Source: Bacillus nitratireducens
Lineage (GTDB): Bacteria > Bacillota > Bacilli > Bacillales > Bacillaceae_G
NCBI RefSeq assembly: GCF_001884135.1
Contig: NZ_MAOC01000027.1
Location: 124,001-188,000 of the forward strand
Direction of reading: 5' to 3'
DNA: 64,000 bases
The position numbers were made by a program, and so were the translations under genes. Of the stretch, positions 1,405-22,455 are shown one piece after another (positions within the stretch are counted from its first letter, which is position 1; each line of letters starts with the position of its first letter). The notes under the pieces were generated by a model that saw only the letters and a program-made list of their open reading frames with translations, ran no database searches and had not been told where the DNA came from.

Positions 1405-2070
1405 ATGAAAAACTATCATATTCTCGTGGTAGAAGACGATCAAGAAATTCAGGAATTAATTAAACAATTTTTAATGACACAACAGTATACAGTGGTAGTC
1501 GCATCAGATGGATTAGAGGGTATGACACAATTTAATAAGCAATCCTTTGATTTAATTCTTCTAGATGTAATGATGCCCAATCTTAATGGATTTGAAGTAT
1601 CCAAGATGATTCGAAGTCAGTCAAACGTACCAATTATTATGCTAACTGCGTTAGAAGAGGAAGAAGATCAAATGAAAGGGTTTGATCTTGGAATCGATGA
1701 TTATATAACAAAACCCTTTTCGTTTCATGTTTTGATTAGACGAGTCGAAGCTGTACTTAGAAGAAGTTATGATAAAAATGTAAATAATCATTTGGTATTT
1801 CAAGAAGTGCGTATCGATGTTGATGCATATAGAGTATATGTAAATGACATTGAAATTTTATTAACGACAAAAGAATTTGAAATTCTACAACTACTATTTC
1901 AAAATGAGAGAAAAGTACTCACAAGAGAAAATATCGTAGAAAAAGTTTGGGGGTACGATTATTTTGGAGAAACACGAATAATTGATACACACATTAAAAA
2001 CCTACGTAAAAAATTAGCTATTCCTTACATTAAAACAATAAAGGGTATTGGTTATAAAATTGATGAGTAG
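1405..2070 (+). CDS. OmpR/PhoB-family response regulator
   Basis: A 221-residue response regulator. The receiver domain (about residues 1-115) has the acidic pair D11/D12, the phospho-acceptor D54 in LLLDVMMP, T81 and K103 in the ITKPF motif. The C-terminal winged helix (about 125-221) has the OmpR-type TKEFEILQLLF and RIIDTHIKNLRKK segments. I choose the ATG at 1405 because AGAGGTGAT precedes it at good spacing; an ATG seven codons upstream lacks this. The stop overlaps the start of the histidine kinase gene, so the two are co-translated. Target genes are not evident. The nearby carrier and beta-lactamase are candidates only by position. Confidence 0.93.
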   Translation: MKNYHILVVEDDQEIQELIKQFLMTQQYTVVVASDGLEGMTQFNKQSFDLILLDVMMPNLNGFEVSKMIRSQSNVPIIMLTALEEEEDQMKGFDLGIDDYITKPFSFHVLIRRVEAVLRRSYDKNVNNHLVFQEVRIDVDAYRVYVNDIEILLTTKEFEILQLLFQNERKVLTRENIVEKVWGYDYFGETRIIDTHIKNLRKKLAIPYIKTIKGIGYKIDE

Positions 2071-3565
2071 CATTATAAAAATTATGAAGATGAAGCAAAT
2101 TACTTATAAACTCTTTATGACTACCTCTCTCATTTTGTTATCCTTTGCAGTATTGATTTATTTAATTTTATACTTCTTTCTCCCTACGTTTTATGAGCAA
2201 TACAAAACAGATCAACTTCAAACAGGGATAAAAGAAATCATTGATAAGTCTAAAGATCTTACGTTTCAAGATGCGATACCACTTTTTGATGAATATGCAA
2301 AAAAAAATAATGCGATGCTTTATCTTCAAAATAATGAGGGAATAATTAAATACTCTCCTTCATTTTCTTTTACTCAAAATGGTTCGCAAACAACAGTAGT
2401 TACTAGAGCGACACGGTTTGAAAATGCAGGTACCCTTAGCAATTCATATAACGTTACGAAACCAATTCAATTCCAAGATGGTAGTTTAACGCTTATAGTC
2501 TTTGCTACATTTCAACCAATTGATGAAGCTTCACAGGTTTTAGTACGCTTTCTCCCCTATATTAGTATCATTGTACTCATAATTGGTATAGGGAGTGCTT
2601 ATTTCTATTCCAGGTTTATTACAAAACCACTTATTTATATTAATGAGGGTGCACAAAAGATGGCAAATTTAGATTTCTCCGAAAAAATTGAGGTTCGCTC
2701 TACAGATGAGTTAGGAGAATTATCTAATAGTTTGAATGACATGTCTATTAACTTACAACAAGCTATGTTTGATTTAAAAAAAGCAAATCAGCAATTAAAA
2801 AATGATATTGAAAAAGAACGAGAAATAGAAACAAAACGCAGAGAGTTTTTTGCGATTGTAGCACATGAATTAAAGACCCCTCTTACTGTAATGAAAGGAT
2901 CCTTAGAAGGGATGATATACAATATTGGCCCTTATCAAAATCGTGATCAATATTTAAAGAAAAATCATCAAATTATTGAAAGTATGGAACAATTAGTTCG
3001 TGAAATTTTAAGCATGTCGAAATTAGAACAACACACCTTTAAACTAAAAATAGAAGAAGTTAATCTTTCAAAGTTAATAGGTACAATCACAAAAGATCTC
3101 GAATTTTTTGCTTCTCAAAAAAGCATCCAAATAATAAAAGAAATTGATTCTGATCTTTCTGTTTATACAGATCGTGTTCTTTTTGAAAAAGCATGTAAAA
3201 ATATTATCCATAATGCGGTCATGTATTCACCACATAATGAAAAAGTCTATATAAAGTTAAGTGAGGATTCTAAACAAGGTCAAATCAAAATGCAAATTAT
3301 GAATACAGGTGTCAATATTAAAGAAGAGGATATACAACAAATTTTCAAACCATTTTATCGAATTGAAAAATCAAGGAATCGAAATACTGGAGGAAGTGGT
3401 TTGGGGCTATATATTGTTAAACAAATTCTTGAAACGCTAGATATAAAGTATTCTATAAAGAATATGGAACGTAGTGTACAATTTAGCATGAACATTCCAT
3501 TATCTAAACAAAAAACAAACAAACAAACTCCCCTCTTAGTAGGACGAGTTTGTTTGTTTTTGTAG
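2063..3565 (+). CDS. Membrane sensor histidine kinase
   Basis: About 500 residues. Two membrane segments, one near the N-terminus (LILLSFAVLIYLILYFF) and one near residue 170 (IIVLIIGIGSAYF), flank an extracytoplasmic sensor of about 125 residues. A HAMP linker follows, then the H-box (AHELKTPLT, phospho-acceptor His), the N-box (KNIIHNAVMYS) and the G-box (GSGLGLYIVKQ). The ATG at 2063 overlaps the regulator's stop codon (ATGAGTAG), which suggests translational coupling. In-frame starts at 2048, 2084 and 2090 are also possible. The last codons run through a transcription terminator, so the final 15 or so residues look like hairpin-encoded tail. The signal sensed is unknown. Confidence 0.92.
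   Translation: MSSIIKIMKMKQITYKLFMTTSLILLSFAVLIYLILYFFLPTFYEQYKTDQLQTGIKEIIDKSKDLTFQDAIPLFDEYAKKNNAMLYLQNNEGIIKYSPSFSFTQNGSQTTVVTRATRFENAGTLSNSYNVTKPIQFQDGSLTLIVFATFQPIDEASQVLVRFLPYISIIVLIIGIGSAYFYSRFITKPLIYINEGAQKMANLDFSEKIEVRSTDELGELSNSLNDMSINLQQAMFDLKKANQQLKNDIEKEREIETKRREFFAIVAHELKTPLTVMKGSLEGMIYNIGPYQNRDQYLKKNHQIIESMEQLVREILSMSKLEQHTFKLKIEEVNLSKLIGTITKDLEFFASQKSIQIIKEIDSDLSVYTDRVLFEKACKNIIHNAVMYSPHNEKVYIKLSEDSKQGQIKMQIMNTGVNIKEEDIQQIFKPFYRIEKSRNRNTGGSGLGLYIVKQILETLDIKYSIKNMERSVQFSMNIPLSKQKTNKQTPLLVGRVCLFL
3516..3560. terminator. Bidirectional terminator inside the kinase 3' end
   Basis: GAGTTTGTTTGTTT forms a perfect 14-bp stem (arms 3516-3530 and 3546-3560) around a 15-base loop and ends in a T run. 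It lies between the convergent kinase and carrier genes and overlaps the last codons of the kinase. Confidence 0.85.
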
Positions 3566-3595: not shown

Positions 3596-4984
3596 TTAAG
3601 CATTATTGGGATTAGCCTTTTTACCAATCCACATACCTAAGCCCACCATGCCAAGCCAACAGCAAATTGCTAACATAAACATCAATCGTTGTACGGATAA
3701 CCCTTCAATCTGCATTTGACTCTTCCCAACAATTGTTTGGAAAAGTTGCGACCATTCGACATTGTAAAATACCCCTACTCCCACAATCACAATCAATATA
3801 AAAAATTGTAAAAATATATTCCCCACATTTCTCCATGTTGTGTAAATGAGTAAAGAAAGCTCTCTATGTATAGTATCCACCATATATACTTTCAAATTAT
3901 TTTGAGAAGAAATACTATTAATGGCATAGCTCCCAAATGTAACGCTAAGGACTATAAATATTGGAGAATAAAACCCGAATATCATGATTAAAGTACTTAC
4001 TAAAAACAAATGGATTGGATTAACTTTCTTAGCAGCTTTGATATCTAAAAATATGGACATCAAAATCCCTAATAGGTATGGTCCAACTACAATGAAAATA
4101 CAGATTAACATGTTATAGAAAGTAAAACTATAAAAAATACCTATCAAAAATAAATATCCACTTCCTAATCCAAGTAAAAATGATTCTGCCTTTAAGCGAA
4201 TTGGTAAAGAAGATGAAAGTTTATGAAAGAACTTTCCTTTCAACAAACCCAAAAACATGAAACAAATAAGCGCTATAGAGAGTAGAAAGAAACAGAAAAT
4301 ATATTGGTCATTATTTATGTTACGACTTGTTCGTATCAAAAGAATAAGCATTGAGACAAAAAGAAACTTTCCTACTACCGATACGATAGAGATAGGTAAA
4401 AGCCCTTTGGCTAACTCTGTTCTCGGCATTTTTTTTATAGCAAAAAGGATACTGATTAAACAAATCCCATATGTGCATGTTATCAGCGGCGGCGATAGAA
4501 AACTAATCGCTAACAATACGATTATTAGTAAAAGAAAAACGATGCCAATAATAATCGCTTGTTGATTTTTATTATAAATCTTTCCCCCGCCTTCCACATG
4601 TAGAAACAATAAAGTACTCGTCATGGTAGAAATTGTACTACCTGCAAAACCAGAAACTAACGCACTTATTTCGAGCCATCTTGAACTCCATCCAAAGAAA
4701 GTAACACTAAGTAATGATACTATCAGAATAGAAACAGTCCAATATAAGGAGCGGTGAATCCCAGCCTTATTCACAATAGGTATCCAGATAAACACACCCG
4801 TCATATAAGTTGTATAAAACAAGATTGATGGCCAGTATCCCTCAAAGCCTTTCGAAATCTGTAATCCATAAACAATATAAATAAGCATGGGTGTAAAGAT
4901 AGTCGTTATTAGTAGACTAAATGTAGTTATACTTTGCACCACAAGTCTTTTTTGCTTTGGCGTATGTATCGTATAACACCTCAC
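3596..4984 (-). CDS. MFS-like polytopic membrane carrier, 12 TM
   Basis: About 460 residues, almost entirely hydrophobic segments (about 12 membrane helices) with a basic loop (AIKKMPRTELAKG) near the middle, as in two 6-helix halves. This is the layout of a major facilitator exporter, but I cannot place it in a subfamily. The frame opens with a GTG at 4984 that lies inside the ribosome binding site (AAGTGAGGTG). The best-spaced codon after that site is an ATA at 4969-4967, so the natural start may be an ATG mutated to ATA. The gene converges on the two-component operon and shares its terminator. Confidence 0.6.
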   Translation of the reverse strand: MRCYTIHTPKQKRLVVQSITTFSLLITTIFTPMLIYIVYGLQISKGFEGYWPSILFYTTYMTGVFIWIPIVNKAGIHRSLYWTVSILIVSLLSVTFFGWSSRWLEISALVSGFAGSTISTMTSTLLFLHVEGGGKIYNKNQQAIIIGIVFLLLIIVLLAISFLSPPLITCTYGICLISILFAIKKMPRTELAKGLLPISIVSVVGKFLFVSMLILLIRTSRNINNDQYIFCFFLLSIALICFMFLGLLKGKFFHKLSSSLPIRLKAESFLLGLGSGYLFLIGIFYSFTFYNMLICIFIVVGPYLLGILMSIFLDIKAAKKVNPIHLFLVSTLIMIFGFYSPIFIVLSVTFGSYAINSISSQNNLKVYMVDTIHRELSLLIYTTWRNVGNIFLQFFILIVIVGVGVFYNVEWSQLFQTIVGKSQMQIEGLSVQRLMFMLAICCWLGMVGLGMWIGKKANPNNA

Positions 4985-5041
4985 TTAAAATGAAATCAGT
5001 AGTTGTTATTACTTATTTTATCCGAAACGAGGTTGTTATAT

Positions 5042-5104
5042 ATGCGCTATCCAATTGAAATTCCCGTTACAAGGAAAATTCAATCTAAATCCATATTAAA
5101 TTAA
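5042..5104 (+). CDS. Possible 20-residue peptide or 5' gene remnant
   Basis: ATG at 5042 has a reasonable ribosome binding site (CGAGG, 8 bases upstream). It encodes MRYPIEIPVTRKIQSKSILN and then stops. It may be the left-over start of a deleted gene. No family recognised; low confidence that it is expressed. Confidence 0.2.
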   Translation: MRYPIEIPVTRKIQSKSILN

Positions 5105-5230
5105 GTGAAGTTCAAAAAAATGGATTTTGCGATGCTTAAAAACAAAGTTAATGGATATATTAAAAACTTTAATCATAAATGGAACAAATGTGTTACTTAG
5201 ATTGTCTATTACGTATAAAAAGGTGCTTTT

Positions 5231-5278
5231 GGTAGTACTCTCATTTTGTAATGCAAGAAACACATGAGGAGTGCTATC
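5231..5278 (+). promoter_or_regulatory. Long stem-loop upstream of the beta-lactamase
   Basis: GGTAGTACTCTCAT (5231-5244) pairs with ATGAGGAGTGCTATC (5264-5278). As RNA this gives 14 pairs, two of them G-U, with one bulged G and a 19-base loop. It ends about 80 bases before the lactamase ATG and could lie in its 5' leader. There is no T run directly after it, so it is not an ordinary terminator. Function unknown. Confidence 0.45.
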
Positions 5279-5355
5279 TGGTAGATTTATTAATTGTATC
5301 GGTATGTAAAATACCTAAACAAAATCCATATATTCTTGAAAGAGGTTGAAAATGT

Positions 5356-6288
5356 ATGATAGTTTCAAAGAAGTTTTTTCACATTGCACATTATAAAAAG
5401 ATGCTCCCTGTAGTATTACTTTCATGTGTAACGCTTATAGGCTGTTCCAATAGTAATATTCAATCCGAATCCCCTAAACAAACCAAACAAGAGCATATAA
5501 GTAATCAATCTTTTGTTAAGCTTGAAAAAGATTATGATGCTAAGCTTGGTATTTATGCATTGGACACAGGTACGAATCAAACCGTTACTTATCGTTCAGA
5601 TGAACGGTTTGCATACGCATCTACCCACAAAGCCCTTGCTATAGGAGCACTGTTACAAAAGACATCAATAGAAGATTTAGATCAAATAATTAAGTATACT
5701 AGCAAAGATCTTGTGAATTACAATCCAATTACTGAAAAATATGTAGATACAGGTATGGCTCTGAAAGAGCTTGCGGATGCTTCCATTCGATATAGCGATA
5801 ATACTGCACAAAATCTTATTCTTAAACAATTAGGTGGGCCAAGTGAATTCAAAAAATCACTGAGAGAAATAGGAGATACTGTCACAAATCCTGAACGTTT
5901 TGAACCAGAATTAAACGAAGTGCAGCCAGGAGACACTCGTGATACTAGTACCCCAAAGGCATTAGCTACTAGTCTTCAAGCATACGCGCTAGGCGATATA
6001 CTTTCCATTGAGAAACGGAACTTTTTAATAGATTTGATGAAAAGAAATACTACGGGGGACAACTTAATTCGTGCTGGAGTTCCAGGAGAATGGGAAGTAG
6101 CCGATAAGACTGGCTCTGGGTCTTATGGAACAAGGAATGATATTGCAATCATTTGGCCACCAAATAAAAAGCCAATTATTCTTGCGATACTTTCTAATCA
6201 TGCGAAAGAAGATGCAAAATACGATGATAAACTTATTGCAAATGCAACTAAAATAGTGTTAGACGCTTTAAAAGTAACGAATAAATAA
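5356..6288 (+). CDS. Class A beta-lactamase, lipoprotein (B. cereus beta-lactamase III type)
   Basis: A 310-residue serine beta-lactamase that hydrolyses penicillins and some cephalosporins outside the membrane. A hydrophobic signal peptide ends in a lipobox (TLIGC, Cys30), so the mature enzyme is lipid-anchored. Active-site motifs are complete: STHK (Ser70 and Lys73 in standard numbering), SDN (130), EPELNE carrying Glu166, and KTGSG (234-236). The N-terminus and lipobox closely match B. cereus beta-lactamase III as I remember it, and differ from the secreted type I enzyme. The gene is monocistronic with a terminator after it. No BlaI/BlaR pair is adjacent. Regulation is unknown, apart from the stem-loop upstream. 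Confidence 0.95.
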   Translation: MIVSKKFFHIAHYKKMLPVVLLSCVTLIGCSNSNIQSESPKQTKQEHISNQSFVKLEKDYDAKLGIYALDTGTNQTVTYRSDERFAYASTHKALAIGALLQKTSIEDLDQIIKYTSKDLVNYNPITEKYVDTGMALKELADASIRYSDNTAQNLILKQLGGPSEFKKSLREIGDTVTNPERFEPELNEVQPGDTRDTSTPKALATSLQAYALGDILSIEKRNFLIDLMKRNTTGDNLIRAGVPGEWEVADKTGSGSYGTRNDIAIIWPPNKKPIILAILSNHAKEDAKYDDKLIANATKIVLDALKVTNK

Positions 6289-6358
6289 TTACTCCAAAGA
6301 ATGACTTAGTTAAAATTCATATTTCATTTGAAGACCGTTGATATTGAAAGAGTACAAA

Positions 6359-6393
6359 AAAGAACCTGTAGAATATACTACAAGTTCTTTTTC
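6359..6393 (+). terminator. Rho-independent terminator after the beta-lactamase
   Basis: AAAGAACCTGTAG pairs with CTACAAGTTCTTTTT around a short AT loop, followed by Ts. One internal mismatch. Confidence 0.75.
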
Positions 6394-6544
6394 AAAAATT
6401 GTTAAAAAGGGAATAACAAACTATATTAACATTCAATACAGGGAGACCATTTTGATTATGGCTTGGTTATATTGTATATCAAATATAAACATTTGAAGAA
6501 ACTGATTTCGAAAATTATGTGAATTAAAAACTAGGGTATTTATA

Positions 6545-7222
6545 TTAAATTTCGTTTACTACCAACTTCTTCTTACTTAAATAAACTGCACGATCTGATT
6601 TTTTAGCAACTTCCTGTGAGTGCGTTACAACAATAATACATTTATTTTCTTTATGTGCAAGTTCTTGAAACAGTTCTATTATATCCATTGCCGTTTCTTC
6701 GTCGAGGTTTCCTGTCGGCTCATCCGCAATCAGTAAATCAACATTACAAGATAACGCTCGAGCGATTGCTACACGCTGCTGTTGCCCGCCACTTAGTTGC
6801 AGAACATTTCGTTTCGCTTCTACTTCTGTAAGTCCTACTTTTTCTAATAATTCTAACGCTCTTGCCGTTTTATTTTGCACTTTAACACCTGTAATTTCCA
6901 TTGCTGTTAAGACATTTTGAAGAGCAGTCATATAGGTAATCAAATTATAAGATTGGAAAATTACCGATACATTTTGATTACGGTACCGATCCAAACCAAT
7001 TTTTCGAATATCCTTTCCATTAAACAGTACATAACCATTTTTAGGTATATCTAGCCCACAACCTAAGCTAAGAGTAGTGGTTTTACCAGATCCGGATGGT
7101 CCTAGAATCGTGTAGAAATGTCCTTTTTGAAAAGAAAAGTTAACATTTTCTAGTATCGCTACTTTTTTTCCGTTACTTTCATAATAATAATCTAAGTTTT
7201 TAAACTGTAAAATCGTCTCCAT
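6545..7222 (-). CDS. ABC transporter ATP-binding protein, MacB/LolD type
   Basis: A 225-residue ATPase subunit. Walker A GPSGSGKT (41-48), Q-loop FQSYNL, signature LSGGQQQR (143-150), Walker B LLIADEPTG and switch His201 (VVTHS) are all present and intact. The length and sequence style match the LolD/MacB group, which pairs with FtsX-type permeases. AAGGAGG precedes the ATG. It follows the permease gene by 11 bases, so the two form an operon. Such pairs export peptides or lipoproteins or resist antimicrobial peptides; the substrate here is unknown. Confidence 0.93.
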   Translation of the reverse strand: METILQFKNLDYYYESNGKKVAILENVNFSFQKGHFYTILGPSGSGKTTTLSLGCGLDIPKNGYVLFNGKDIRKIGLDRYRNQNVSVIFQSYNLITYMTALQNVLTAMEITGVKVQNKTARALELLEKVGLTEVEAKRNVLQLSGGQQQRVAIARALSCNVDLLIADEPTGNLDEETAMDIIELFQELAHKENKCIIVVTHSQEVAKKSDRAVYLSKKKLVVNEI

Positions 7223-7233
7223 ATCGAGCCTCC

Positions 7234-8664
7234 TTATTCATCTTTTAAAAGAATTTGTTTTGGATTCAGGCGTAGAATAGATAATGCTGGAAGAAGCGTT
7301 GCTAATATAGCAATAGCTAGTCCAATCCCCCCCATTTTCCCTACATCTTCTCCTGTTACACTTACATTAATTTTATCAATTGGATCCTCTTTTTGATTTT
7401 GTACAGTTCCACCAGGTCCAGCTACCATCACAGTTCCATTTTGTGAGGTGTTTGTTTCTTCTCCTGCTGTAGCAATTTCACTCGAAAGTAAATTATTCCC
7501 TATGAATTGAGAAATTTTTGCTCCTGTTGTTATGGATAATCCAAATGCTAAAATAGCGATACATACTACTTCTACTACGAACTGCGCCATCAGTTTCCAC
7601 TTTTTCTCTCCAATGGACAATAGAATCCCCATTTCTTTACGACGTGCTTTAATCGATAACATAATGATTAAACCTAATATAATCGCCCCTGCAATCGATA
7701 CAATATAAATAATCATTTGAGAAGTAGAAGAGATATTTTCGATAGGACCAATCATTTGTTTGTACAACGAATCATGTGCATCTAATTTATAATAATTAAA
7801 ATCAATATCAGATTTTTTTGCTTCTTTTTTAAATGCATCAATGTTTTGTGGATCTTTCAAGAAATACACGACTTGAATGCTACTTATACCTTGATCTACT
7901 TCTAATTTTTTCATAGTTGAATGCGGCATATATAGTTTATTAGCTGGATCCATTATAGGAGGGGCCTGTTGACCCATGGCTTGCTCATTCGTTTCGTAAA
8001 TGCCGATAATTTCAACCTCCAGGGTTTCCTTCTTATCCCCTGATTGCACTTTAACTTTGTCTCCTACTTTCAAATTGTTTAATTCCGCTAATCGTTTTTC
8101 CATTAAAGCTACATTCTGATCTTTCATCTGTTCTGTAATTGGTTTCCCATCAATGATTTTACTTTTTCCATTCTTAAAGCTTTCTTGTAATGCAGTTTTG
8201 CGAACGCCCTCAATCATAAAAGAAGAATTCATATCTATTTCTGTACCGGAGCTTGAACCGCCTCGTACAGCCGCCATTCCCGCCTTACCTTTTCCTTCTT
8301 CTTCTCCTTCTGAAGCTCCTACTAGTTTAAGTCCATCCGAAATTCCGAAAGTGTTAGTTATGTAATTATAGTCTTTTACATACTTTGACTTCGCTAATTG
8401 ATCTGCTTCTTTTGTATTAAGCTTTGGCGGATTAGGCATCTCTCCGGTTTCCCTAGCTTGTTGACCTAATTTGTCAAAATCAAGACTTAAAGTAACATCT
8501 GCACCGAGTTTTTTTCTTGCTGCATCAGCAGCTTTTTTTGATGCATTTTGGATTGTAAATCCTGCCAACACTAAATTTGTAACAATTAGGAAAACCGCCA
8601 TCAAAATTAATGATGTTCCTACTCTTTTTTTCATACTGAGAATTGCTCGTTTCATAAAGTTCAT
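7234..8664 (-). CDS. FtsX/MacB-type ABC transporter permease
   Basis: 476 residues: one N-terminal membrane helix (about 14-34), a large extracytoplasmic MacB-type core of about 280 residues, then three C-terminal helices. The FtsX-like segment GLIIMLSIKARRKEMGILLS carries the typical R-x-K-E-x-G-I-L coupling motif. The extracytoplasmic part has a low-complexity Gly/Ser/Lys stretch (EGEEEGKGKAGMA). Start ATG at 8664 has AAGGAGG. First gene of a two-gene operon with the ATPase. The domain order matches peptide or lipoprotein-handling exporters rather than importers; no binding protein is nearby. Confidence 0.9.
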   Translation of the reverse strand: MNFMKRAILSMKKRVGTSLILMAVFLIVTNLVLAGFTIQNASKKAADAARKKLGADVTLSLDFDKLGQQARETGEMPNPPKLNTKEADQLAKSKYVKDYNYITNTFGISDGLKLVGASEGEEEGKGKAGMAAVRGGSSSGTEIDMNSSFMIEGVRKTALQESFKNGKSKIIDGKPITEQMKDQNVALMEKRLAELNNLKVGDKVKVQSGDKKETLEVEIIGIYETNEQAMGQQAPPIMDPANKLYMPHSTMKKLEVDQGISSIQVVYFLKDPQNIDAFKKEAKKSDIDFNYYKLDAHDSLYKQMIGPIENISSTSQMIIYIVSIAGAIILGLIIMLSIKARRKEMGILLSIGEKKWKLMAQFVVEVVCIAILAFGLSITTGAKISQFIGNNLLSSEIATAGEETNTSQNGTVMVAGPGGTVQNQKEDPIDKINVSVTGEDVGKMGGIGLAIAILATLLPALSILRLNPKQILLKDE

Positions 8665-8798
8665 TTTTTCTTACCTCCTTGATAACTTGTATTCTATATA
8701 GGTTATCTAGAGTCTATATGGAGCTAATCAGTAGTTTATCTAGAGATATAAGGAGTTTATGTGTAGTTATTCATTGACCTGGTCAAGAAAAACCGGAA

Positions 8799-8834
8799 CA
8801 CATATTCAAAAACGTAATCGTTTTTGAATATGTG
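8799..8834. repeat. Perfect 36-base hairpin (16-bp stem, TAAT loop)
   Basis: CACATATTCAAAAACG is followed by TAAT and its exact reverse complement. An AAGGAGG follows directly on the plus strand. It lies about 135 bases upstream of the ABC permease start. There is no T run; it could be an operator, an RNA structure or a mobile-element scar. Confidence 0.6.
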
Positions 8835-8917
8835 CAAGGAGGTATATGGCTTTAGATAGCATTGAATGAGAGCATATAAACCCATGCTTATTACGTAATT
8901 TCTATACAACAAATAAA

Positions 8918-12924: not shown

Positions 12925-14379
12925 TCAAGGTTGAGAAACAGATATAAGATGTTTAGGCGATGTGTTTATTTCCTCTGCCAACGCCTTAATGCTCATCATG
13001 ATTTGAAGTATTTCTTCTAATGTTGTCCTCGGGTTGATAGAGCAAAGTCGAATTACTACTTTTTCTTTTAATTTAGTCGTACTTAGCATAGCAAATCCTC
13101 TTTGATTAATTTCTTCCACCAGTTTTTTGTTTATTTCATGAATTGTTTCTGTAGACGTTCGCTTACAAGGAATATAACGAAAAGTAACAATTCCTAATTG
13201 GGCAGGTGTTACTACTTCCCAATCTTTTTCTTTCCTTAAAAACTCTTCAACTTGTTCAGCCAACATAATACCATGATCAATTGCCTCACGAAAAGCTGTG
13301 ACTCCAAATGCTTTAAAAGAAAGCCATACCTTTAATGCCCTAAATCTACGAGAAAGTTCAATTCCACGCTCCCCAAAATTCACTTTTTCTTCTATATTAG
13401 TTTCCGTATCCTTAATATACTCTGGGATCATACGGAACGTTTCACTTAAATATTGGCTATTTCGAATAAGTACACAACCAACATCATAAGGCTGAAAAAG
13501 CCATTTATGCGGGTCTAACGTCAAAGAATCAGCACGATGAATTCCTCTTAACAACTCCCTTCCTTTTTCACTGAGAATTGCTGCAGCCCCATAAGCACCA
13601 TCCGCGTGTAGCCATACATCTTCATCACCACATAGATCAGCCAATTCATCGAGGGAGTCCACCGCTCCGCAATTCGTTGTCCCTGCATTAGCAATAACAC
13701 AAAATGGTTTTTTCCCTTTTAATCGATCTTCTTTTATTTGCTTTCTTAAAGTACTAACTGAAATTCTTAAATCTTCATCTGTTTCAATTCGGCAAATTTG
13801 ATGATGTTTAAAACCTAATACTTTAAGTGCTCGATCTACAGAAAAATGAGTTTGGTTAGAAAAATACACAACGGCATTTTCTATGTCATTATTCAGCTTG
13901 ACCTGTCTCGCTACAGTAAGTGCCGTCAAATTAGCCATGGAACCACCACTGACAAATAGCCCTTCAGCTGAATCAGGGAATCCTAGCATTGATTTTAACC
14001 AGTTGATTGTCGTTAATTCAATTTGTTCAGCACCTGCACCTACTATCCAAGCTGTAGGAAATACATTAAACCCACTTGCTAAAAAATCTGCTACTACACC
14101 AACATAATTATTAGGACCTGGCACAAAAGCCATAAAATGAGGATGATCCACATGAGTAATTTGATTAAACACATTGTTATTAAGAAAATGAAGTAACTCT
14201 TTTGGATTGGATCCGTTTTCTGGAATCGTTTCAATTAGCTTGTCTCTAAAAATATTACTATCAATCGTTTCCGAAACTGGTTTACTTTTTAAATGATTCA
14301 TATGATCAACAATCAAGTCCACCGCTTGATATCCTAACTGACGCATCTCTTCGGCTGATAACTGCAAGTTTTTTGTCAT
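12925..14379 (-). CDS. PLP-dependent aromatic amino acid decarboxylase (amine supplier of the NRPS cluster)
   Basis: 484 residues, a group II pyridoxal-phosphate decarboxylase. Visible landmarks are HPHFMAF near residue 80, the His of QTHFS (178), NAGTTNCGAVD (231-241), the PLP-binding Asp of HADGAYG (260), and the Schiff-base lysine of LDPHKWL (Lys292). The length matches aromatic L-amino acid decarboxylases (tryptophan, tyrosine, phenylalanine). It lies 55 bases downstream of the NRPS in the same direction, behind a hairpin. Inference: it makes an amine such as tryptamine or phenethylamine, used as the nucleophile that releases the NRPS product. The exact amino acid cannot be read from the sequence. 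Confidence 0.9.
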   Translation of the reverse strand: MTKNLQLSAEEMRQLGYQAVDLIVDHMNHLKSKPVSETIDSNIFRDKLIETIPENGSNPKELLHFLNNNVFNQITHVDHPHFMAFVPGPNNYVGVVADFLASGFNVFPTAWIVGAGAEQIELTTINWLKSMLGFPDSAEGLFVSGGSMANLTALTVARQVKLNNDIENAVVYFSNQTHFSVDRALKVLGFKHHQICRIETDEDLRISVSTLRKQIKEDRLKGKKPFCVIANAGTTNCGAVDSLDELADLCGDEDVWLHADGAYGAAAILSEKGRELLRGIHRADSLTLDPHKWLFQPYDVGCVLIRNSQYLSETFRMIPEYIKDTETNIEEKVNFGERGIELSRRFRALKVWLSFKAFGVTAFREAIDHGIMLAEQVEEFLRKEKDWEVVTPAQLGIVTFRYIPCKRTSTETIHEINKKLVEEINQRGFAMLSTTKLKEKVVIRLCSINPRTTLEEILQIMMSIKALAEEINTSPKHLISVSQP

Positions 14380-14402
14380 TTGGTTTACTCCTATTCTATT
14401 TA

Positions 14403-14428
14403 AAAAGGCGAGTTCTTGCTCGCCTTTT
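14403..14428 (-). terminator. Hairpin between NRPS and decarboxylase genes
   Basis: AAAAGGCGAG and its exact reverse complement flank a 6-base loop. On the minus strand it is followed by a short T run. It lies directly after the NRPS stop and could lower transcription of the decarboxylase by partial termination. Confidence 0.75.
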
Positions 14429-14434
14429 CATTTT

Positions 14435-17400
14435 TTATAATTTGTAATCACCGATTGCCTGTATTGGATTTTGAAGAATCCTGTTGATTAACTGATGGAT
14501 GTGATTCAATATTTCCTGTATTTTCTCCGCTTCATATACGGATTGATCATATCCAAACTTTATTGTAAGTTTCTCTTCAGGGAAACACATAATTCCATAC
14601 TTTACATGAGGCTCATCAACAACTTCGTAATCTGTGATGGCAAAATTTCTGTTTTCATTTGAAGAAAAGATAGCTGAGTTAGTCGGATAGTTTTCAAAAA
14701 CCCAAAGATGGTCAGTCAACTCAGTTTTTAATTCACTTTGTTTTTGTATATCAACAAATGAATAGTATGCATACTCATTACATTTCAATGTTTCTAGTTG
14801 TACTTTTTGCAGGAAGTCCACAAAAGATTGCGTTTCTGTCCATGCTAGTCGGATAGGCAAAACATTTGTGAACAGACCGAACATATTTTCAATCCCTTCT
14901 ACTTCGGGAGGTCTGACTGATACTAGATTAGGTAGTACTACTTCTCTCATTCCGTTGTATTTGCCAAGCAATATTCCCCATACAGCTAGTAATGCCGAAT
15001 TCATAGTTATATTGTTTTTAGTTACAAATGTCTGTAACTGATTAGTCAAATCCTTATCTAATATTAAATCCATAAATGTGAAATTTAACCCTTCACTTTG
15101 AGTTGATACTTTCTGTTTAGGAATACTAATTTTTCGATTGTATCCTGATAAATAATCCCGCCAAAAATGACGTGCTTTCTCATGATCTCGTGCTACAGTC
15201 CAATCTATGAATGTCTCAAAAGGTTTCACCATAGGTAACTCTGCCGTAGTTCCCGCATTTATTGTTTCATAGAGCTGGAATAATTCGTCTATCAAAATGC
15301 TGACGCTCCAACCATCACATAATAGATGATGGGAACTCCAAACCACCTTATGCTCGTTATTTCCTAGTTGGAATATACAGAGACGGGTCATGAGTTCATC
15401 TTTTTTGAATCCTTGACTTAAATTTTCATTCATCCACTGGTCTAGGAATTCTTGCTGTTCTTGTTTCGTCATCTCAATCAAGTTTTTTATCTCTGAAATC
15501 ATTTGAATATCGTGTAGAACAGCTTGCCAAGGTTGTGCTTGTTCATCTTGCACAATTATCGTCCTTAAAGAATCATGACGATCAACTAATTGTTGGAAAC
15601 ACTGAATAAAGAGATTAATATCCAGCTCCCCCTCAAGTGCCCAAATTGTTTGTTCGAAATATGCATTTGTATCAGGTTCAGTCGCAGCATGTTCATAAAT
15701 AACTTCCTGGAAAGGTGCCAATGGGTAAATACGTTCTATTTTTATTTCTGGCATTTTTTCTTGTATTTTGATAAGTGTATGTTGATTAAGTTGTTTATCT
15801 TTAACATTTAGTGATGTAACTTTATTATCGTTCATTTTGTTTACATCACTTGTTTGCGAATTTGGAAGATGATCAAGCTTTTTAACGAATTGAACCATGT
15901 CTCCTAATATAGGAAATGAAAATAAATTTTTTGGCTCTAGCTCAAATCCTTGTCTATACAGTCTGACGGAAACTTGAATCGCTTTTATCGAATCTCCACC
16001 TAAGGCAAAGAAATGATCATTTACTCCAATACGATCTACTTTGAGTACTTCTTGCCAAACACTAGTTAATATTTTTTCCATTTCAGTTTTTGGAGCAATA
16101 AATACTTCATTTGTTTGTTTCTCCGGAGTAGGGAGCGCTTTTCTATCTAATTTCCCGTTTGGAGTCAAGGGCAATTGTTCCAAATAAACAAAATAAGAAG
16201 GAATCATGTAATCTGGCAAGTGATCTCGCAAATGCTTTCGTAGTTCTGTTGTGCTAATATTTTGCTCAGTTACCACATATGCGACTAAAAATTTTATACC
16301 ATACTCATCTGTCTGATCAATCACTACTGCATGTTCGACTTGTTTGTAAGTGAGAAGACAATGGGCGATTTCTTCTAACTCTACTCGATATCCTTGAATT
16401 TTAACTTGATAATCTTGGCGGCCTAAAAATTCAATATATCCCTCAGGATGCATTTTTCCACAGTCTCCTGTCTTGTAAATAAGACCAAAATCAGAATGTG
16501 ATACAAATGCTTCATTTGTTTTCTGTTCATCATTTAAATATCCTTTAGCAAGGCCCATTCCCCCGATATATAAATCTCCAATTACACCAACAGGGCACAT
16601 TTTCTTTTCATAGTTCAACACATAATACGTTTGGTTTGCCAAAGGTATCCCATATGGAATACTCTTCCAATTCGATCCCACCTGTTTGACTGGATAATAA
16701 ATTGACCAAATCGATGCTTCTGTTGCTCCTCCGAGTGAAACTACTTCCGCAATCGGAAAATGTCGTTTTATTTTTTCTGGTAAAGAAAGTGGAATCCAAT
16801 CTCCACTATGTAAAACTAAACGCAAGGAAGAATGTTCAAAATGAGAACCTACTTGATCTAATGCCAAATCCATAATTGCAGGTACTGTATTCCAAATTGT
16901 AATTCCTCTACGTTCGACAGTACGGATTAATTCTTGCATGTCTCTTGGGTCACGAATCATTACCAACATTGCACCTGTGCTTAACGTTCCGAAAATATCG
17001 TATACAGATAAGTCAAAACACATAGAAGAAATACCAATAATACGATCATCTTCATTTACCTGATATTTTTGATTAATATCTTGAATGGTATTTGTAACGG
17101 CTTGGTGAGTAATAATTACTCCTTTCGGTTTTCCTGTACTTCCTGAAGTGTAGATAATATAGGCAAGATCTTCCGGACCAGCAATAGCAGGCATATCTTT
17201 TGTTGTATATAATGACAAGTGGTTTTCTGCATAAAGACTAGATTCTAATACAAGTTTGCATGAGCTATTTTCTAAAATATATGTTTGGCGATCTGAAGGA
17301 TGGTCGGGATCAATTGGAACATAAGCGGCACCTGCTTTTAAAATACCTATCATATTAGCAATTGTGTCAACTCGTCTTTGTGCTAAAAGACCAACTTTGT

Positions 17401-20400
17401 CACCTAGACCAATTCCTTGTTCTTTTAAAAAGTGCGCAACTTGATTGGAGCGCTTATGAAGCTCCGAGTATGTTAAGTAGTCTTGTTCAAAAACTACTGC
17501 TACTTCATCCGGTGTACGTTTTACTTGGTCTGTAAATAATTGATATAAAGTAGTCGACGGTATTTTTTCTGTTGTCTCATTGTATTGCTCAATTAAAGCA
17601 TGGTCTGACTCTTTCATCTGCAAAGATGTTACGTCACTTTGTTTCACTAATTGTTCCAATAAGTCAACAAATTGGTGAAACATCGCTTCTATCACATCAA
17701 CATCAAACAATTCTTCAACATAGTTCCAGCTAATTAATAACTTTCCATTTTTTTCAATTACCACATTATCCAAATACACTTGTGGAGTCCGAGCATGAAT
17801 ATGGCGAAGTGAACCAAGCTGTTCCCAAGCAAAAGCCCCCGCACCTGCTAGCATCGAGGTGAAAACAATTGGCATAACTGCTTTTGGCGTCATTTGATGA
17901 TATCGAGTAAAATCTCGAATGAAATTAACTCCATCGTAATGGCGATGTTCGAGACCATCTAATAAAGTAGATTGCGTTTCTTTTACTCTAGTAAAGAAAG
18001 TTTGATCTGGATTCACATCAACATCCAACAAGATGAGTGAAGTGAAATCTCCCACAATTTGCTCTACTTCTTCATGAACAGGATAACGGTTAAATACAGT
18101 CAAATTAATTGCCAATCGACGTTGATTACTCCAATATGCCAATACATCACCATATATTGTACAAAGCAGAGCCGAAGGAGTTACTTCTTTCTCTTGTGCT
18201 AACTTTCGTAGCTTTTTCCATATTTCATTATCCAGGATCTTAGTAAGTGATTGGAACTTAGGAGTAGCAATCTCTGCCGGATCCTTTTTTAACAGCAAAG
18301 AAGGCGCAAACGGAAAGTCAGGAAGCTTACTTGTCCAATAATCTTTTGCTGTTTTATATTCTGTACTTTGTTCCAGTTCATCATAGATAAACATGTAATC
18401 TTGAAAATCAAAAGATAGAGGTTCTAACCTTTGCTCTGGTTTATAATAATAATGAAACAAATCCTGTCCAACGATGTTCATGCTTGCTCCGTCCATTAAT
18501 AAAGCATCGTATCGAAAACATAATAAATACGTGTCTTCTTTTAAAAGAAAGGCTTTTAATTCAAACAAAGGCCATTGCCCTAAAGGAAATACATGATTAG
18601 TCATTCGAGAACGTTCTTCTTGTAAGCGAGCATTTTGATTCCTATCATCTAAATCTATGAGGCTCACTATTTCAATCTCGTAATCAGGAACGCTTTTTAA
18701 TATTTGCTGTTCTCCCTCTGGTAAAATTACAGCTCGTAACATCGGATGACGTTGAATTACCTTTTGAAAACTTTTTGAAAGACGATTGATATTCAATTCT
18801 GTTTCATATTCAAAATAAGTTTGAGGTGAAATACCACTTAATTCAAACTGTGAATTCCGTCCTAACATGTACGCTGTCTGAACCTCTGTTAAGGGAAATG
18901 GCTTAGACAAATCTTTAACATGGGTTAGTCTATTTTCAAAGTTTTCCGTTTTATGCTCTAACTTTACACAATTACTAAGTTGAGCAATCGTGGGATGCTT
19001 AAAAAAATCTGTTGTACTTATTTTTAAGCAGTCTTTTCTTAATAAATTAATTACCTGAAGTGCTTTAATCGATTCTCCTTTTAAAGCAAAAAAATTATCA
19101 TGAATACCGATTCCCTCAATCTCCATAACTTTTTCCCATGCATGCACCAATTTTTGTTCAATTTCATTGCGCGGGGCAACGTATGGAATTGATACATAAT
19201 CTGTTTGTGTTATCTCTAATAACCTTTTCCTATCTACTTTCCCATTTGGATTCAACGGAATCTCTTCCACCTGAATCATTTTTTCAGGAATCATAAACTC
19301 AGGTAATTTATCACTTAAATATTTTCTGATTTCATCAAAAGAGACCTTATTATCCGATACATAGTACACAGCTAATAATTTCCTATTTCCATATACTTGA
19401 TCAACAACGATAGCTTGGTTTATTTCTGGATATTCCCTTAACTGGCTTTCGATTTCTCTTAATTCAATCCGATATCCCCGAATTTTCACTTGATGATCCA
19501 TTCGACCTAGATATTCAAGTTCTCCATTAGGCAACCAACGAACGAGATCACCCGTATGATACATCATTTCTCCTGCTGTAAAAGGACTCGGTACAAACTT
19601 TTCATCTGTCAGTTTAGATTTCCCAAGATATCCTCGTGCTACCGCCACGCCACCAATGCAGAGTTCACCCGGAATTCCAAATGGTTTTAATTGACCATAC
19701 TTATTCAATATATAGGAATGATAATTCGGGTTGGGACTTCCAATCGTAACTTCTTTGGCAGAGCTCAAATCCTTTACTGTTGCACAAATGGTTGTTTCTG
19801 TAGGACCATAAATATTTAAAATTGTCGCTTCACTGATGCATCGAATTTTTTCAACCAAATCAATGGAAAATGCTTCTCCTGCTAACAAAATAGATTTTAA
19901 ATCTTTTAGAAAATTTGCCCCTTCTGGATCACTCAAAATCACTTCCATTCGCGATGGCGTTGATTCCCATAAATCCACCTTATGTTCTTTGACCAAATAA
20001 GCTAATTCTTTTGTTGCGAACTGATCCTCTGTAGCAATAATTACTTTCGAACCTTGTGTTAAAGGCAGACATATTTCTAACAAGGAGATATCAAAAGATA
20101 CACTAGCAAGAAACAAGAATGACTGATTATCTTTTACTTTTTCTCTCATTACACTTAAAAAATGGACAAGAGATTTCTGTTCTACCATTACCCCTTTTGG
20201 ATTCCCTGTCGATCCCGATGTGTAAATAACATAAGCTAAATCATTAGGATAACTTTCTCGAACTAAATTACTTTCCTCACCTTGGAAGAGATATTCCTCA
20301 TCAAGATACAGCACTTCACCCGCAAATTGCGGCAATTCTACTTCTGTTCGCTTGCTCAGTAAACATTTCGCTTGACTATCTTGTAACATATATTCAATTC

Positions 20401-21472
20401 GTTCATTTGGATAGTTAGGATCGATTGGTAAATACGCTGCTCCTGCTTTTAAAATCCCCACCATGCCAATGATCATTTCCAATGAACGATCTACCATAAC
20501 CCCAATAATACTTTCTTTCGAAACACCTTTACTTTGAAGAATAGAAGCCAATTGATTTGCTTTCTTATTCAATTCTCTATATGTCAAAGATTGATCATTA
20601 CAAACAACAGCAATTTGATCTGGGGTTTTTAACACTTGCTCCTCAAACAAATCTTGAAATGATTGAGACAATTCTATGTCCGCCTGACCTTGATTCAATT
20701 CTTCTAGCAACTCTTTCTCTTCTTCTGAAATGATACAAATATCTTTCACAGCCAAATTCGAATTTGTTGACACTTGCTTTAAAACATAAAGATATGAATT
20801 TGCAAACTGTTGCAAAGAAGAGAATGAGTGAGAATTGAAAGAAATTTGAATTTCAAATTCATTATGTATTTCATTCCATTTTCTTTGTATCCAGATGGCT
20901 AAATTATTCTCTGCATATTCTTCTATCGAATTTTTATTATGTAATCCTTCCATCCCAATAACAATTTGAAAAGGAGTTAAATGGTGTTTCGCTAATAATT
21001 CAGAGAGTGGATAACTCTGATTGCCATACCCGAATAAAGTCGTTTGTTCAATCTGATTTACTACTTGTTTAAAGCTGTGATGCGGATGGATTTCACTTCC
21101 TAAAGGAATCAATTTATTAAGATTCTCGCTTTGTTCAATATTCTTTTCAATTACAGGAATACCAATAGTAATCCTTTCTTGATCTGTATAGTGTGCCAAA
21201 CAAATCCTTAACGCGGCCTGTAACCAGCTAAATAATAATAAATCTTGAGACTTAATTATTTTTTGTATACTTTTACTAAACTCTACATTCATTATGACTT
21301 GAACGTGCTCGCAAGGATTTTCTTTATTTAGTTGGTAACCGCTATTAAATAAAGAAAAATCGAGAACCTCGGAAGATAACTGCTCCTTCCAAAACGCCTC
21401 TACTCCTTTATTTTCATGAATCGAACTTCGATCTTTAATGTGCATTTTTATCTTTATCCCCCTAATATTCAT
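14435..21472 (-). CDS. Bacillamide-type NRPS: half-C / A1 / PCP1 / Cy / A2(Cys) / PCP2 / C
   Basis: 2345 residues. Order: partial condensation domain (about 25-250, acceptor half only, no HHxxxDG); A1 (270-755; YTSGSTGNPKG, NGKVDR); PCP1 (LKGES, Ser801); heterocyclisation domain (855-1300; DALLMD with Asp989 and Asp994 in place of HHxxxDG, GDFTSL, PIVFTS); A2 (1305-1780); PCP2 (GGDS, Ser1828); C-terminal condensation domain (1910-2345, HHLLCDG 2048-2054). No thioesterase or reductase. A2 specificity residues read DLYNLSLIW, the textbook cysteine code. A1 reads DILELAIIC, which I cannot assign. Predicted chemistry: load a residue, add and cyclise cysteine, release onto an amine. The ATG at 21472 is coupled to the oxidase stop; the ATG at 21445, behind AGGGGG, is an alternative start. 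Confidence 0.95.
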   Translation of the reverse strand: MNIRGIKIKMHIKDRSSIHENKGVEAFWKEQLSSEVLDFSLFNSGYQLNKENPCEHVQVIMNVEFSKSIQKIIKSQDLLLFSWLQAALRICLAHYTDQERITIGIPVIEKNIEQSENLNKLIPLGSEIHPHHSFKQVVNQIEQTTLFGYGNQSYPLSELLAKHHLTPFQIVIGMEGLHNKNSIEEYAENNLAIWIQRKWNEIHNEFEIQISFNSHSFSSLQQFANSYLYVLKQVSTNSNLAVKDICIISEEEKELLEELNQGQADIELSQSFQDLFEEQVLKTPDQIAVVCNDQSLTYRELNKKANQLASILQSKGVSKESIIGVMVDRSLEMIIGMVGILKAGAAYLPIDPNYPNERIEYMLQDSQAKCLLSKRTEVELPQFAGEVLYLDEEYLFQGEESNLVRESYPNDLAYVIYTSGSTGNPKGVMVEQKSLVHFLSVMREKVKDNQSFLFLASVSFDISLLEICLPLTQGSKVIIATEDQFATKELAYLVKEHKVDLWESTPSRMEVILSDPEGANFLKDLKSILLAGEAFSIDLVEKIRCISEATILNIYGPTETTICATVKDLSSAKEVTIGSPNPNYHSYILNKYGQLKPFGIPGELCIGGVAVARGYLGKSKLTDEKFVPSPFTAGEMMYHTGDLVRWLPNGELEYLGRMDHQVKIRGYRIELREIESQLREYPEINQAIVVDQVYGNRKLLAVYYVSDNKVSFDEIRKYLSDKLPEFMIPEKMIQVEEIPLNPNGKVDRKRLLEITQTDYVSIPYVAPRNEIEQKLVHAWEKVMEIEGIGIHDNFFALKGESIKALQVINLLRKDCLKISTTDFFKHPTIAQLSNCVKLEHKTENFENRLTHVKDLSKPFPLTEVQTAYMLGRNSQFELSGISPQTYFEYETELNINRLSKSFQKVIQRHPMLRAVILPEGEQQILKSVPDYEIEIVSLIDLDDRNQNARLQEERSRMTNHVFPLGQWPLFELKAFLLKEDTYLLCFRYDALLMDGASMNIVGQDLFHYYYKPEQRLEPLSFDFQDYMFIYDELEQSTEYKTAKDYWTSKLPDFPFAPSLLLKKDPAEIATPKFQSLTKILDNEIWKKLRKLAQEKEVTPSALLCTIYGDVLAYWSNQRRLAINLTVFNRYPVHEEVEQIVGDFTSLILLDVDVNPDQTFFTRVKETQSTLLDGLEHRHYDGVNFIRDFTRYHQMTPKAVMPIVFTSMLAGAGAFAWEQLGSLRHIHARTPQVYLDNVVIEKNGKLLISWNYVEELFDVDVIEAMFHQFVDLLEQLVKQSDVTSLQMKESDHALIEQYNETTEKIPSTTLYQLFTDQVKRTPDEVAVVFEQDYLTYSELHKRSNQVAHFLKEQGIGLGDKVGLLAQRRVDTIANMIGILKAGAAYVPIDPDHPSDRQTYILENSSCKLVLESSLYAENHLSLYTTKDMPAIAGPEDLAYIIYTSGSTGKPKGVIITHQAVTNTIQDINQKYQVNEDDRIIGISSMCFDLSVYDIFGTLSTGAMLVMIRDPRDMQELIRTVERRGITIWNTVPAIMDLALDQVGSHFEHSSLRLVLHSGDWIPLSLPEKIKRHFPIAEVVSLGGATEASIWSIYYPVKQVGSNWKSIPYGIPLANQTYYVLNYEKKMCPVGVIGDLYIGGMGLAKGYLNDEQKTNEAFVSHSDFGLIYKTGDCGKMHPEGYIEFLGRQDYQVKIQGYRVELEEIAHCLLTYKQVEHAVVIDQTDEYGIKFLVAYVVTEQNISTTELRKHLRDHLPDYMIPSYFVYLEQLPLTPNGKLDRKALPTPEKQTNEVFIAPKTEMEKILTSVWQEVLKVDRIGVNDHFFALGGDSIKAIQVSVRLYRQGFELEPKNLFSFPILGDMVQFVKKLDHLPNSQTSDVNKMNDNKVTSLNVKDKQLNQHTLIKIQEKMPEIKIERIYPLAPFQEVIYEHAATEPDTNAYFEQTIWALEGELDINLFIQCFQQLVDRHDSLRTIIVQDEQAQPWQAVLHDIQMISEIKNLIEMTKQEQQEFLDQWMNENLSQGFKKDELMTRLCIFQLGNNEHKVVWSSHHLLCDGWSVSILIDELFQLYETINAGTTAELPMVKPFETFIDWTVARDHEKARHFWRDYLSGYNRKISIPKQKVSTQSEGLNFTFMDLILDKDLTNQLQTFVTKNNITMNSALLAVWGILLGKYNGMREVVLPNLVSVRPPEVEGIENMFGLFTNVLPIRLAWTETQSFVDFLQKVQLETLKCNEYAYYSFVDIQKQSELKTELTDHLWVFENYPTNSAIFSSNENRNFAITDYEVVDEPHVKYGIMCFPEEKLTIKFGYDQSVYEAEKIQEILNHIHQLINRILQNPIQAIGDYKL

Positions 21473-21477
21473 TTCAT

Positions 21478-22455
21478 CTATTCGTTAATTTTCAAACCAA
21501 TTTCAAGCCCATGGAGAAATACTTGATGGTTATCCAAACATAAAAACTGCTGGATCTCTTCAAATTTCATATGACCAACTGAACAAACGCCTAAATTCAA
21601 TGTCTCAGCCACCATATTTAAGGTAGCAGTGATAATACCAGACTCAATACAAGCAAATAAATATCCATCTGAACCGTATTTCGGGATGGAAGCGTTCGCA
21701 TTATAAACCAAATAAACTGAAAAGGCAGACTGAGTAAATAAATCTTGGTTAATTAACTCATGATCACTTTTGATTACTTGATCAATATTATTTACAATCA
21801 CAAGACAGTTTTTTGATGGGTTATAATAATAAAACCCAGCTTTCATACCTTCTATACGTTTTGGTTTTATATAAACAAAGATATCAATAGGGTAGAGTCC
21901 GCCTGCACTTGCGTAATGATAGTATATATTTTCTTTCCTAACCTGTTTTAGAGTTGATATGAATTGGGAAAATTCTAAAAAACTAATATGTTTTTTCATA
22001 TCAAATTGGCGACAAGACCTACGTTCCTTGATTATAGTGGGTAGCTCATTTGTTGTTTCAAGTTGAATTTCGGTTGACCGCACAGCATGGTGCGTTCGAT
22101 TCAATTGTTCACTCATATACTTATCTAAATCTTCTTTAGAAAAGCGAATCTGGTTGCTATATGGATTCGGAAAAATCTTTTCTTGTGTGGCAAATACTTC
22201 TCTTGGGGGTAATATGTTACTTACTAACACACGGTTTTTTATCATAAGCTCTATTGTTTTTTGTGTCTCTTCTACATTTCCTAACGAAAAGTGCTCTACT
22301 AGTTCACTAATTTTCACACCTTTTTGAGTCAAAAAATAAAACTCAGGAAACCACTCAGACAGAACGCCTGTAAATCTTGTTTCCCCTATCAAAATTTGAT
22401 TATGCAATTTCTCCCAATGCTTAATAGGAGACCAGTAATAAATTTGCTCGCTCAT
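21478..22455 (-). CDS. SagB/McbC-type FMN-dependent thiazoline oxidase
   Basis: 325 residues. The C-terminal half is a nitroreductase-like FMN oxidoreductase of the SagB/ThcOx group: RRSCRQF (about 160, phosphate/FMN-binding arginines), YHYASAGGLYPIDIFVY, GFYYYNPSKNCL and a C-terminal ETLNLGVCSVGHM segment. The N-terminal 110 residues are the usual helical leader of stand-alone SagB-type enzymes. Start ATG at 22455 has GGAGGG at 5-base spacing; the frame is open further upstream but lacks a site. It ends 5 bases before the NRPS ATG. Known relatives oxidise azolines to azoles in bacteriocins and on NRPS carriers; here it should turn the Cy-made thiazoline into thiazole. Confidence 0.88.
   Translation of the reverse strand: MSEQIYYWSPIKHWEKLHNQILIGETRFTGVLSEWFPEFYFLTQKGVKISELVEHFSLGNVEETQKTIELMIKNRVLVSNILPPREVFATQEKIFPNPYSNQIRFSKEDLDKYMSEQLNRTHHAVRSTEIQLETTNELPTIIKERRSCRQFDMKKHISFLEFSQFISTLKQVRKENIYYHYASAGGLYPIDIFVYIKPKRIEGMKAGFYYYNPSKNCLVIVNNIDQVIKSDHELINQDLFTQSAFSVYLVYNANASIPKYGSDGYLFACIESGIITATLNMVAETLNLGVCSVGHMKFEEIQQFLCLDNHQVFLHGLEIGLKINE

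What the first reader, a model, noticed from the sequence alone, without database searches (positions are those of the whole stretch)
12925..22455. Compact bacillamide-type thiazole alkaloid cluster: oxidase, NRPS, amino acid decarboxylase
Three co-directional genes fit one pathway. The NRPS has a heterocyclisation domain followed by an A domain with the exact cysteine code DLYNLSLIW. A SagB-type oxidase can aromatise the thiazoline. There is no thioesterase, but a C-terminal condensation domain is followed by a gene for an amine-making decarboxylase. Bacillamides (aminoacyl-thiazole-tryptamide compounds) are made this way in other Bacillales. The cluster in this genomic context may give a known or a new member.
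Basis: partly seen in the sequence, partly recalled or inferred. Interest (0 to 1): 0.85.

Follow-up and report, generated by a model that had tools for sequence, protein, structure and literature searches.

The report
Bacillamide biosynthesis gene cluster (bmd type)
These three genes look like an intact copy of the well-known bacillamide pathway, which joins alanine, a cysteine-derived thiazole ring and tryptamine into a small algicidal and cytotoxic alkaloid, so the find is real but ordinary.

Summary
Window 12925-22455 (minus strand) carries, in transcription order, an FMN oxidase, a 2345-aa NRPS and a PLP decarboxylase, each an open frame. They match the published bacillamide system: NRPS module and oxidase hit the solved Thermoactinomyces vulgaris BmdB and BmdC, and a locus whose oxidase is 323 of 325 identical to crystallised BmdC (L030) is 66-70% identical to the window gene for gene. 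15 of 15 tested catalytic, carrier and docking residues are conserved. Published work shows that this gene set makes bacillamide D, that a B. cereus cluster has the same order and also a 55-bp NRPS-decarboxylase spacer, and that over 400 such clusters exist. The likeliest product is bacillamide D. Product, expression and source species could not be shown here. Two small points were not found in the passages I read: the NRPS begins with the C-terminal half of a condensation domain, and the 55-bp spacer holds a hairpin kept in four of four clusters compared, with a free T-run hardly present in any. That makes the published 'terminator' reading doubtful. New member of a known kind; low interest.

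The parts
21478..22455 (-). bmdC-type FMN oxidase (RRE-like domain plus SagB-type nitroreductase domain), 325 aa; aromatises thiazoline to thiazole on the carrier protein
   Evidence: TIGR03605 152 bits; 7ly7_B BmdC 502 bits; 66% to L030; nine of nine tested residues conserved
14435..21472 (-). bmdB-type NRPS, 2345 aa ORF (probable start codon at 21445, residue 10, behind AGGGGG); half-C, A1, PCP1, Cy, A2, PCP2, C; no thioesterase
   Evidence: (7ly7_A BmdB 1818 bits over residues 853-1867)
20705..21409 (-). C-terminal half of a condensation domain (residues about 22-256) with no N-terminal lobe or HHxxxDG motif
   Evidence: PF00668 positions 192-455 of 456, 57 bits; present in four of four clusters, 75/75/41% identity to the window
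19214..20647 (-). A1 domain, predicted alanine (pocket columns identical to L030)
18953..19165 (-). PCP1, carrier serine 801 (= BmdB S792)
17585..18916 (-). Cy heterocyclisation domain; DxxxxD present, T1205 and D1235 (= T1196, D1226, numbers recalled)
   Evidence: (5t3e, 805 bits)
16118..17575 (-). A2 domain, cysteine code DLYNLSLIW(K); R1521/R1522 (= BmdB R1512/R1513) that dock the oxidase
15869..16075 (-). PCP2, carrier serine 1828 (= BmdB S1820)
14438..15736 (-). Terminal C3 condensation domain with intact HHLLCDG; releases the product by amide formation with the amine
   Evidence: 310 bits
14403..14428 (-). Intercistronic hairpin inside the 55-bp NRPS-decarboxylase spacer (14380-14434)
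   Evidence: (z -5.5 here); core GGCGAG/CTCGCC in four of four clusters. The terminator scan lists this hairpin on the plus strand only, not on the operon's strand
12925..14379 (-). bmdA-type PLP decarboxylase, 484 aa, PLP lysine K292; predicted tryptophan decarboxylase making tryptamine
   Evidence: 70% to L030, 87% to L001 and L002
12869..12901 (-). Terminator-like hairpin behind the decarboxylase gene
   Evidence: consensus match only

Best explanation
A complete bacillamide cluster, bmdC-bmdB-bmdA in transcription order. A1 loads alanine on PCP1 and A2 loads cysteine on PCP2. The Cy domain joins them and cyclises to the thiazoline. The oxidase, docked on A2, oxidises it to the thiazole while still bound to PCP2. 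The decarboxylase turns tryptophan into tryptamine, and the terminal C domain uses tryptamine to cut the chain off as an amide, giving bacillamide D. Shown here: genes, domains and conserved residues. Shown by others on relatives: the chemistry. Inferred: that this copy is expressed and makes this product.
For: BmdB and BmdC structures are the top sequence hits. L030 carries an oxidase 323 of 325 identical to crystallised BmdC, so it stands in for the reconstituted T. vulgaris pathway; window against L030 is 66% (oxidase), 67% (NRPS), 70% (decarboxylase). 15 of 15 tested residues are the same: nine in BmdC (FMN contacts, active-site Tyr, two docking Asp) and six in BmdB (two carrier Ser, two docking Arg, Cy Thr and Asp). 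A1 pocket columns are identical to L030 and L001, with one change (I to L) in L002. PMC8795117 (parts 1-3 of 9 and passages) reports in vitro reconstitution to bacillamide D; PMC11133360 (parts 1-2 of 7 and passages) reports bacillamide D from a B. cereus cluster of the same gene order with a 55-bp spacer.
Against: No product or transcript was measured. The substrates of this decarboxylase and of A1 rest on homology. The A1 code (DILELAIICK, read by eye with recalled positions) is not an alanine code that I recall; alanine rests on likeness to the T. vulgaris enzyme. In the survey of PMC5686519 only 58% of 19 strains predicted to make bacillamide gave a matching mass (passage), so a cluster may be silent.
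Confidence: 0.93

Rival explanations
1. A bacillamide-type cluster whose product differs in one building block (another first amino acid, or phenethylamine or tyramine in place of tryptamine).
For: Only sequence was tested, and the solved relatives of the decarboxylase include tryptophan, tyrosine and DOPA enzymes.
Against: The decarboxylase is 87% identical to that of B. atrophaeus NRS 213 (L002) and 70% to that of L030; PMC8795117 says that B. atrophaeus BmdA is a tryptophan decarboxylase (that work was on another strain, C89; title in the reference list seen). A1 pocket columns are unchanged from L030.
Confidence: 0.06
2. A tailored bacillamide (A, B or C: ketone, hydroxyl or N-acetyl in place of the free amine) is the real end product, through a gene elsewhere in the genome.
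For: Other Bacillus strains yield such compounds (PMC11133360). A flavin-dependent oxidoreductase gene lies next to the cluster in L001 and L030.
Against: No homologue of that oxidoreductase lies in the window (tblastn), and PMC11133360 obtained bacillamide D and tryptamine, no other bacillamide, from the three genes in E. coli. The genome of the window is not held, so genes elsewhere could not be searched.
Confidence: 0.15
3. A different thiazole NRPS system (such as an epothilone-like or siderophore module) that merely shares the Cy-A-PCP unit.
For: Such modules are among the weaker hits: PchE (7emy_A) 493 bits, EpoB Cy domain (5t7z_A) 258 bits.
Against: BmdB scores 1818 bits, and gene order and docking residues match bmd.
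Confidence: 0.01

Closest known systems
BmdA-BmdB-BmdC of Thermoactinomyces vulgaris (bacillamide D; PDB 7ly4, 7ly5, 7ly6, 7ly7, 5t3e)
   Same: Three genes, NRPS domain order A-PCP-Cy-A-PCP-C, separate FMN oxidase with RRE-like domain, docking salt-bridge residues, pocket columns.
   Different: 66-70% protein identity (L030 as stand-in). The two genes beside the cluster in L030 have relatives in L001, and those have no match in the window; other neighbours of L030 were not compared with the window.
bac cluster of Bacillus cereus DSM 28590 (bacillamide D; PMC11133360)
   Same: Order oxidase, 7-kb NRPS, decarboxylase; about 9.5 kb; 55-bp spacer with a predicted terminator before the decarboxylase gene.
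Clusters of Priestia endophytica DSM 13796 (L001) and Bacillus atrophaeus NRRL NRS 213 (L002)
   Same: 80-81% (oxidase), 84% (NRPS), 87% (decarboxylase) identity; same order.
   Different: Among flanking ORFs of 100 aa or more, the only matches to window ORFs are to one window ORF (6545-7222) at 26-31% identity, ABC-transporter ATPases by their look.

Membership tests
Bacillamide synthetase system (BmdABC) | Decarboxylase, NRPS and nitro-FMN-reductase-type oxidase genes together | tested here: met
Bacillamide synthetase system (BmdABC) | NRPS domain order A1-PCP1-Cy2-A2-PCP2-C3, no thioesterase | tested here: met
   an N-terminal half-C domain precedes A1, in L030 too
Bacillamide synthetase system (BmdABC) | A2 cysteine pocket and Cy DxxxxD motif with the Thr/Asp dyad | tested here: met
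   (code positions and dyad numbers recalled)
Bacillamide synthetase system (BmdABC) | A1 activates alanine | tested here: inconclusive
   Pocket columns identical to L030; activity not measured
Bacillamide synthetase system (BmdABC) | Oxidase FMN-binding and active-site residues (R145, R146, S147, R149, N236, Y260, G294) | tested here: met
   Seven of seven conserved
Bacillamide synthetase system (BmdABC) | Oxidase docks on A2 through D225-R1513 and D231-R1512 | tested here: met
   Four of four residues conserved; binding itself not tested
Bacillamide synthetase system (BmdABC) | Decarboxylase makes tryptamine from tryptophan | not testable with these tools
   PLP lysine present (K292); specificity needs an assay
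Bacillamide synthetase system (BmdABC) | Product is an aminoacyl-thiazole-tryptamide | not testable with these tools
   Needs mass spectrometry

The most novel reading that the evidence does not exclude
The conserved hairpin between the NRPS and decarboxylase genes is not a terminator, as predicted in print for B. cereus, but an RNA element under selection (processing, 3'-end stability or control of the decarboxylase dose) that travels with the bacillamide cassette: its stem core is kept in four of four clusters compared, while the run of T is taken up by the stem in two and absent in the other two.
Probability: 0.35. Interest if true: 0.3.

Novelty: new member of a known kind. Interest (0 to 1): 0.13.

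Why it matters
It adds one more apparently intact copy of a widespread, characterised pathway whose product is algicidal and cytotoxic in vitro. Its value is mainly as a comparator: docking residues, a half-condensation domain and an intercistronic hairpin are kept across four clusters in different hosts.

Tried and rejected
Structure prediction of the N-terminal half-C domain gave mean pLDDT 37 and was not used; no fold search was run. Rfam found nothing in the window at gathering thresholds. The plasmid collection holds no close cluster (no DNA match; the best place of each of 584 matching records is under 60% identity). Attempts to name the source species failed: no whole genome held; the excinuclease-A-like gene at 56534-59704 (name inferred from its ABC and CXXCXGXG matches) reaches 81% DNA identity at best among 397 Bacillales genomes; window 23000-47900 hits four plasmid records, three Priestia and one Cytobacillus. 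Two literature searches for a truncated or partial condensation domain in starter modules found no paper holding enough of the terms (open-licence papers only). A 'find' in PMC8795117 for N-terminal, truncated and 'residues 1' gave 11 places, none on a half-condensation domain in BmdB. The idea that the neighbouring flavin oxidoreductase of L001 and L030 is part of the pathway found no support in the window.

Full report
Observation. On the minus strand, in transcription order, lie an oxidase (22455-21478, 325 aa from the MSEQ start with a GGAGGG site), an NRPS (21472-14435, 2345 aa, probable start codon at 21445) and a PLP decarboxylase (14379-12925, 484 aa). Each is one open frame. Pfam and NCBIfam agree with the reading: Pyridoxal_deC (245 bits), AMP-binding twice, PP-binding twice, Condensation three times, Nitroreductase, and SagB family TIGR03605 above its cut-off.

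Identity. The NRPS residues 853-1867 match solved BmdB (7ly7_A, 1818 bits), the Cy domain matches 5t3e (805 bits), and the oxidase matches BmdC (7ly7_B, 502 bits). One genome known only by handle (G523) gave a locus, L030, whose oxidase is 323 of 325 identical to crystallised T. vulgaris BmdC. I use L030 as the stand-in for the reconstituted pathway. Window against L030: oxidase 215/325 = 66%, NRPS 1576/2337 = 67%, decarboxylase 336/479 = 70%. Window against L001 (Priestia endophytica DSM 13796) and L002 (Bacillus atrophaeus NRRL NRS 213): 80 and 81%, 84 and 84%, 87 and 87%.

Residues. Of nine BmdC residues named in PMC8795117 (R145, R146, S147, R149, N236, Y260, G294, D225, D231), nine are the same in the window. 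Of six BmdB residues (S792, S1820, R1512, R1513 from the paper; T1196 and D1226 recalled), six are the same, at window residues 801, 1828, 1521, 1522, 1205 and 1235 (a first attempt used a wrong offset and was corrected). The terminal C domain keeps HHLLCDG and the Cy domain keeps DALLMD. By eye, with recalled pocket positions, A2 reads DLYNLSLIWK (cysteine) and A1 reads DILELAIICK, the same in L030 and L001 and with one change (I to L) in L002.

Mechanism. PMC8795117 (parts 1-3 of 9 and passages) reports that T. vulgaris BmdA, BmdB and BmdC make bacillamide D in vitro, that the oxidase acts on the carrier-bound thiazoline, and that it docks on A2. PMC11133360 (parts 1-2 of 7 and passages) reports bacillamide D from a B. 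cereus cluster of the same order expressed in E. coli, with IC50 values of 9.7-22.3 uM on two human cell lines. The window copy is expected to work in the same way; its activity is inferred. PMC8795117 counts more than 400 clusters; PMC11133360 reports presence in about 2/3 of B. cereus group genomes; PMC5686519 (passages) reports 45.7% of its public Bacillus strains. The paper on the B. atrophaeus decarboxylase (PMC3639450) is not held and is known to me only through PMC8795117 and a reference list.

Spread. In the genomes that could be searched, oxidase relatives at E <= 1e-60 were found in 2 of 397 Bacillales genomes, 1 of 2 and 2 of 44 in the genera of G001 and G002, 7 of 398 in the class and 1 of 23 in the family of G523. 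These sets overlap. Identity was 66% or more only in G001, G002 and G523; the other matches were at 36-42%. This is sparser than the published counts, which count strains, whereas this collection holds one genome per species; the B. cereus group may also have escaped the draw. Among flanking ORFs of L001 and L002, the only matches to window ORFs are weak ones (26-31%) to the ORF at 6545-7222, so the three genes behave as a cassette.

Half-condensation domain. NRPS residues about 22-256 match only positions 192-455 of the 456-position Condensation profile (57 bits): the C-terminal half, without the half that carries HHxxxDG. It is present in four of four clusters and is the least conserved domain of the window-L030 comparison (41%, against 62-78% for the six other domains). 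It is unlikely to be a working condensation domain and is probably a scaffold or a relic. Structure prediction was of no use.

Hairpin. The 55-bp spacer before the decarboxylase gene (52 bp in L030) folds into a hairpin in four of four clusters (window, L001, L002, L030: z -5.5, -3.9, -2.8, -2.3; for L030, 6 of 200 shuffles fold as well, for the others none). The stem core GGCGAG/CTCGCC is the same in all four. Spacer identity to the window is 87% (L001), 85% (L002) and 66% (L030), against 65%, 66% and 29% at fourfold-degenerate NRPS sites and 60%, 60% and 27% at those of the decarboxylase gene. The other spacer, between oxidase and NRPS, is also fairly conserved (81, 84 and 55%), so part of the effect is general. 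On the operon's strand the run of T is mostly taken up by the stem in the window and L001 and is absent in L002 and L030. The terminator scan lists the hairpin on the plus strand only, where a tail with six T follows; a role for the opposite strand is therefore not excluded. The B. cereus study removed its spacer as a predicted terminator; the comparison makes that reading doubtful but does not settle it. Because the core does not vary, there is no covariation to test, and four clusters are few.

Verdict. New member of a known kind; interest 0.13.

Noticed in passing
L001 18750-21611 and L030 1346-4419: A flavin-dependent oxidoreductase gene and a Na/H-exchanger gene lie next to the cluster in both loci, 81-82% identical between them; those of L001 have no match in the window or L002. 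They could have travelled with the cluster.
   Followed up: partly
L018 8764-13839: In genome G285 a BmdC-like oxidase (39-40%) lies inside a 1691-aa NRPS frame, inserted in the A domain near the point that PMC8795117 describes for natural embedded oxidases.
   Followed up: partly
L031 and L032 (reverse-complement coordinates 4035-8866 and 3974-8427): In two genomes a stand-alone BmdC-like oxidase (41-42%) is followed by a 1102-aa NRPS frame: a different kind of cluster with the same oxidase family.
   Followed up: no
window 37230-38505: A stretch is 93% identical to a Cytobacillus solani plasmid, where a TetR/AcrR-type regulator and a DUF3995 gene are annotated, so probably recently exchanged.
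   Followed up: no
window 14403-14428, plus strand: Read on the plus strand, the intercistronic hairpin is followed by a tail with six T and fits a terminator, although no plus-strand ORF of 100 aa or more ends close by.
   Followed up: no
window 5356-6288: A class A beta-lactamase-like gene, not far from a response regulator and histidine kinase pair at 1384-3565.
   Followed up: no
window 3596-4984, 41834-42760 and 52751-53545: Three of the 20 ORFs scanned have no Pfam match at E <= 1e-8.
   Followed up: no
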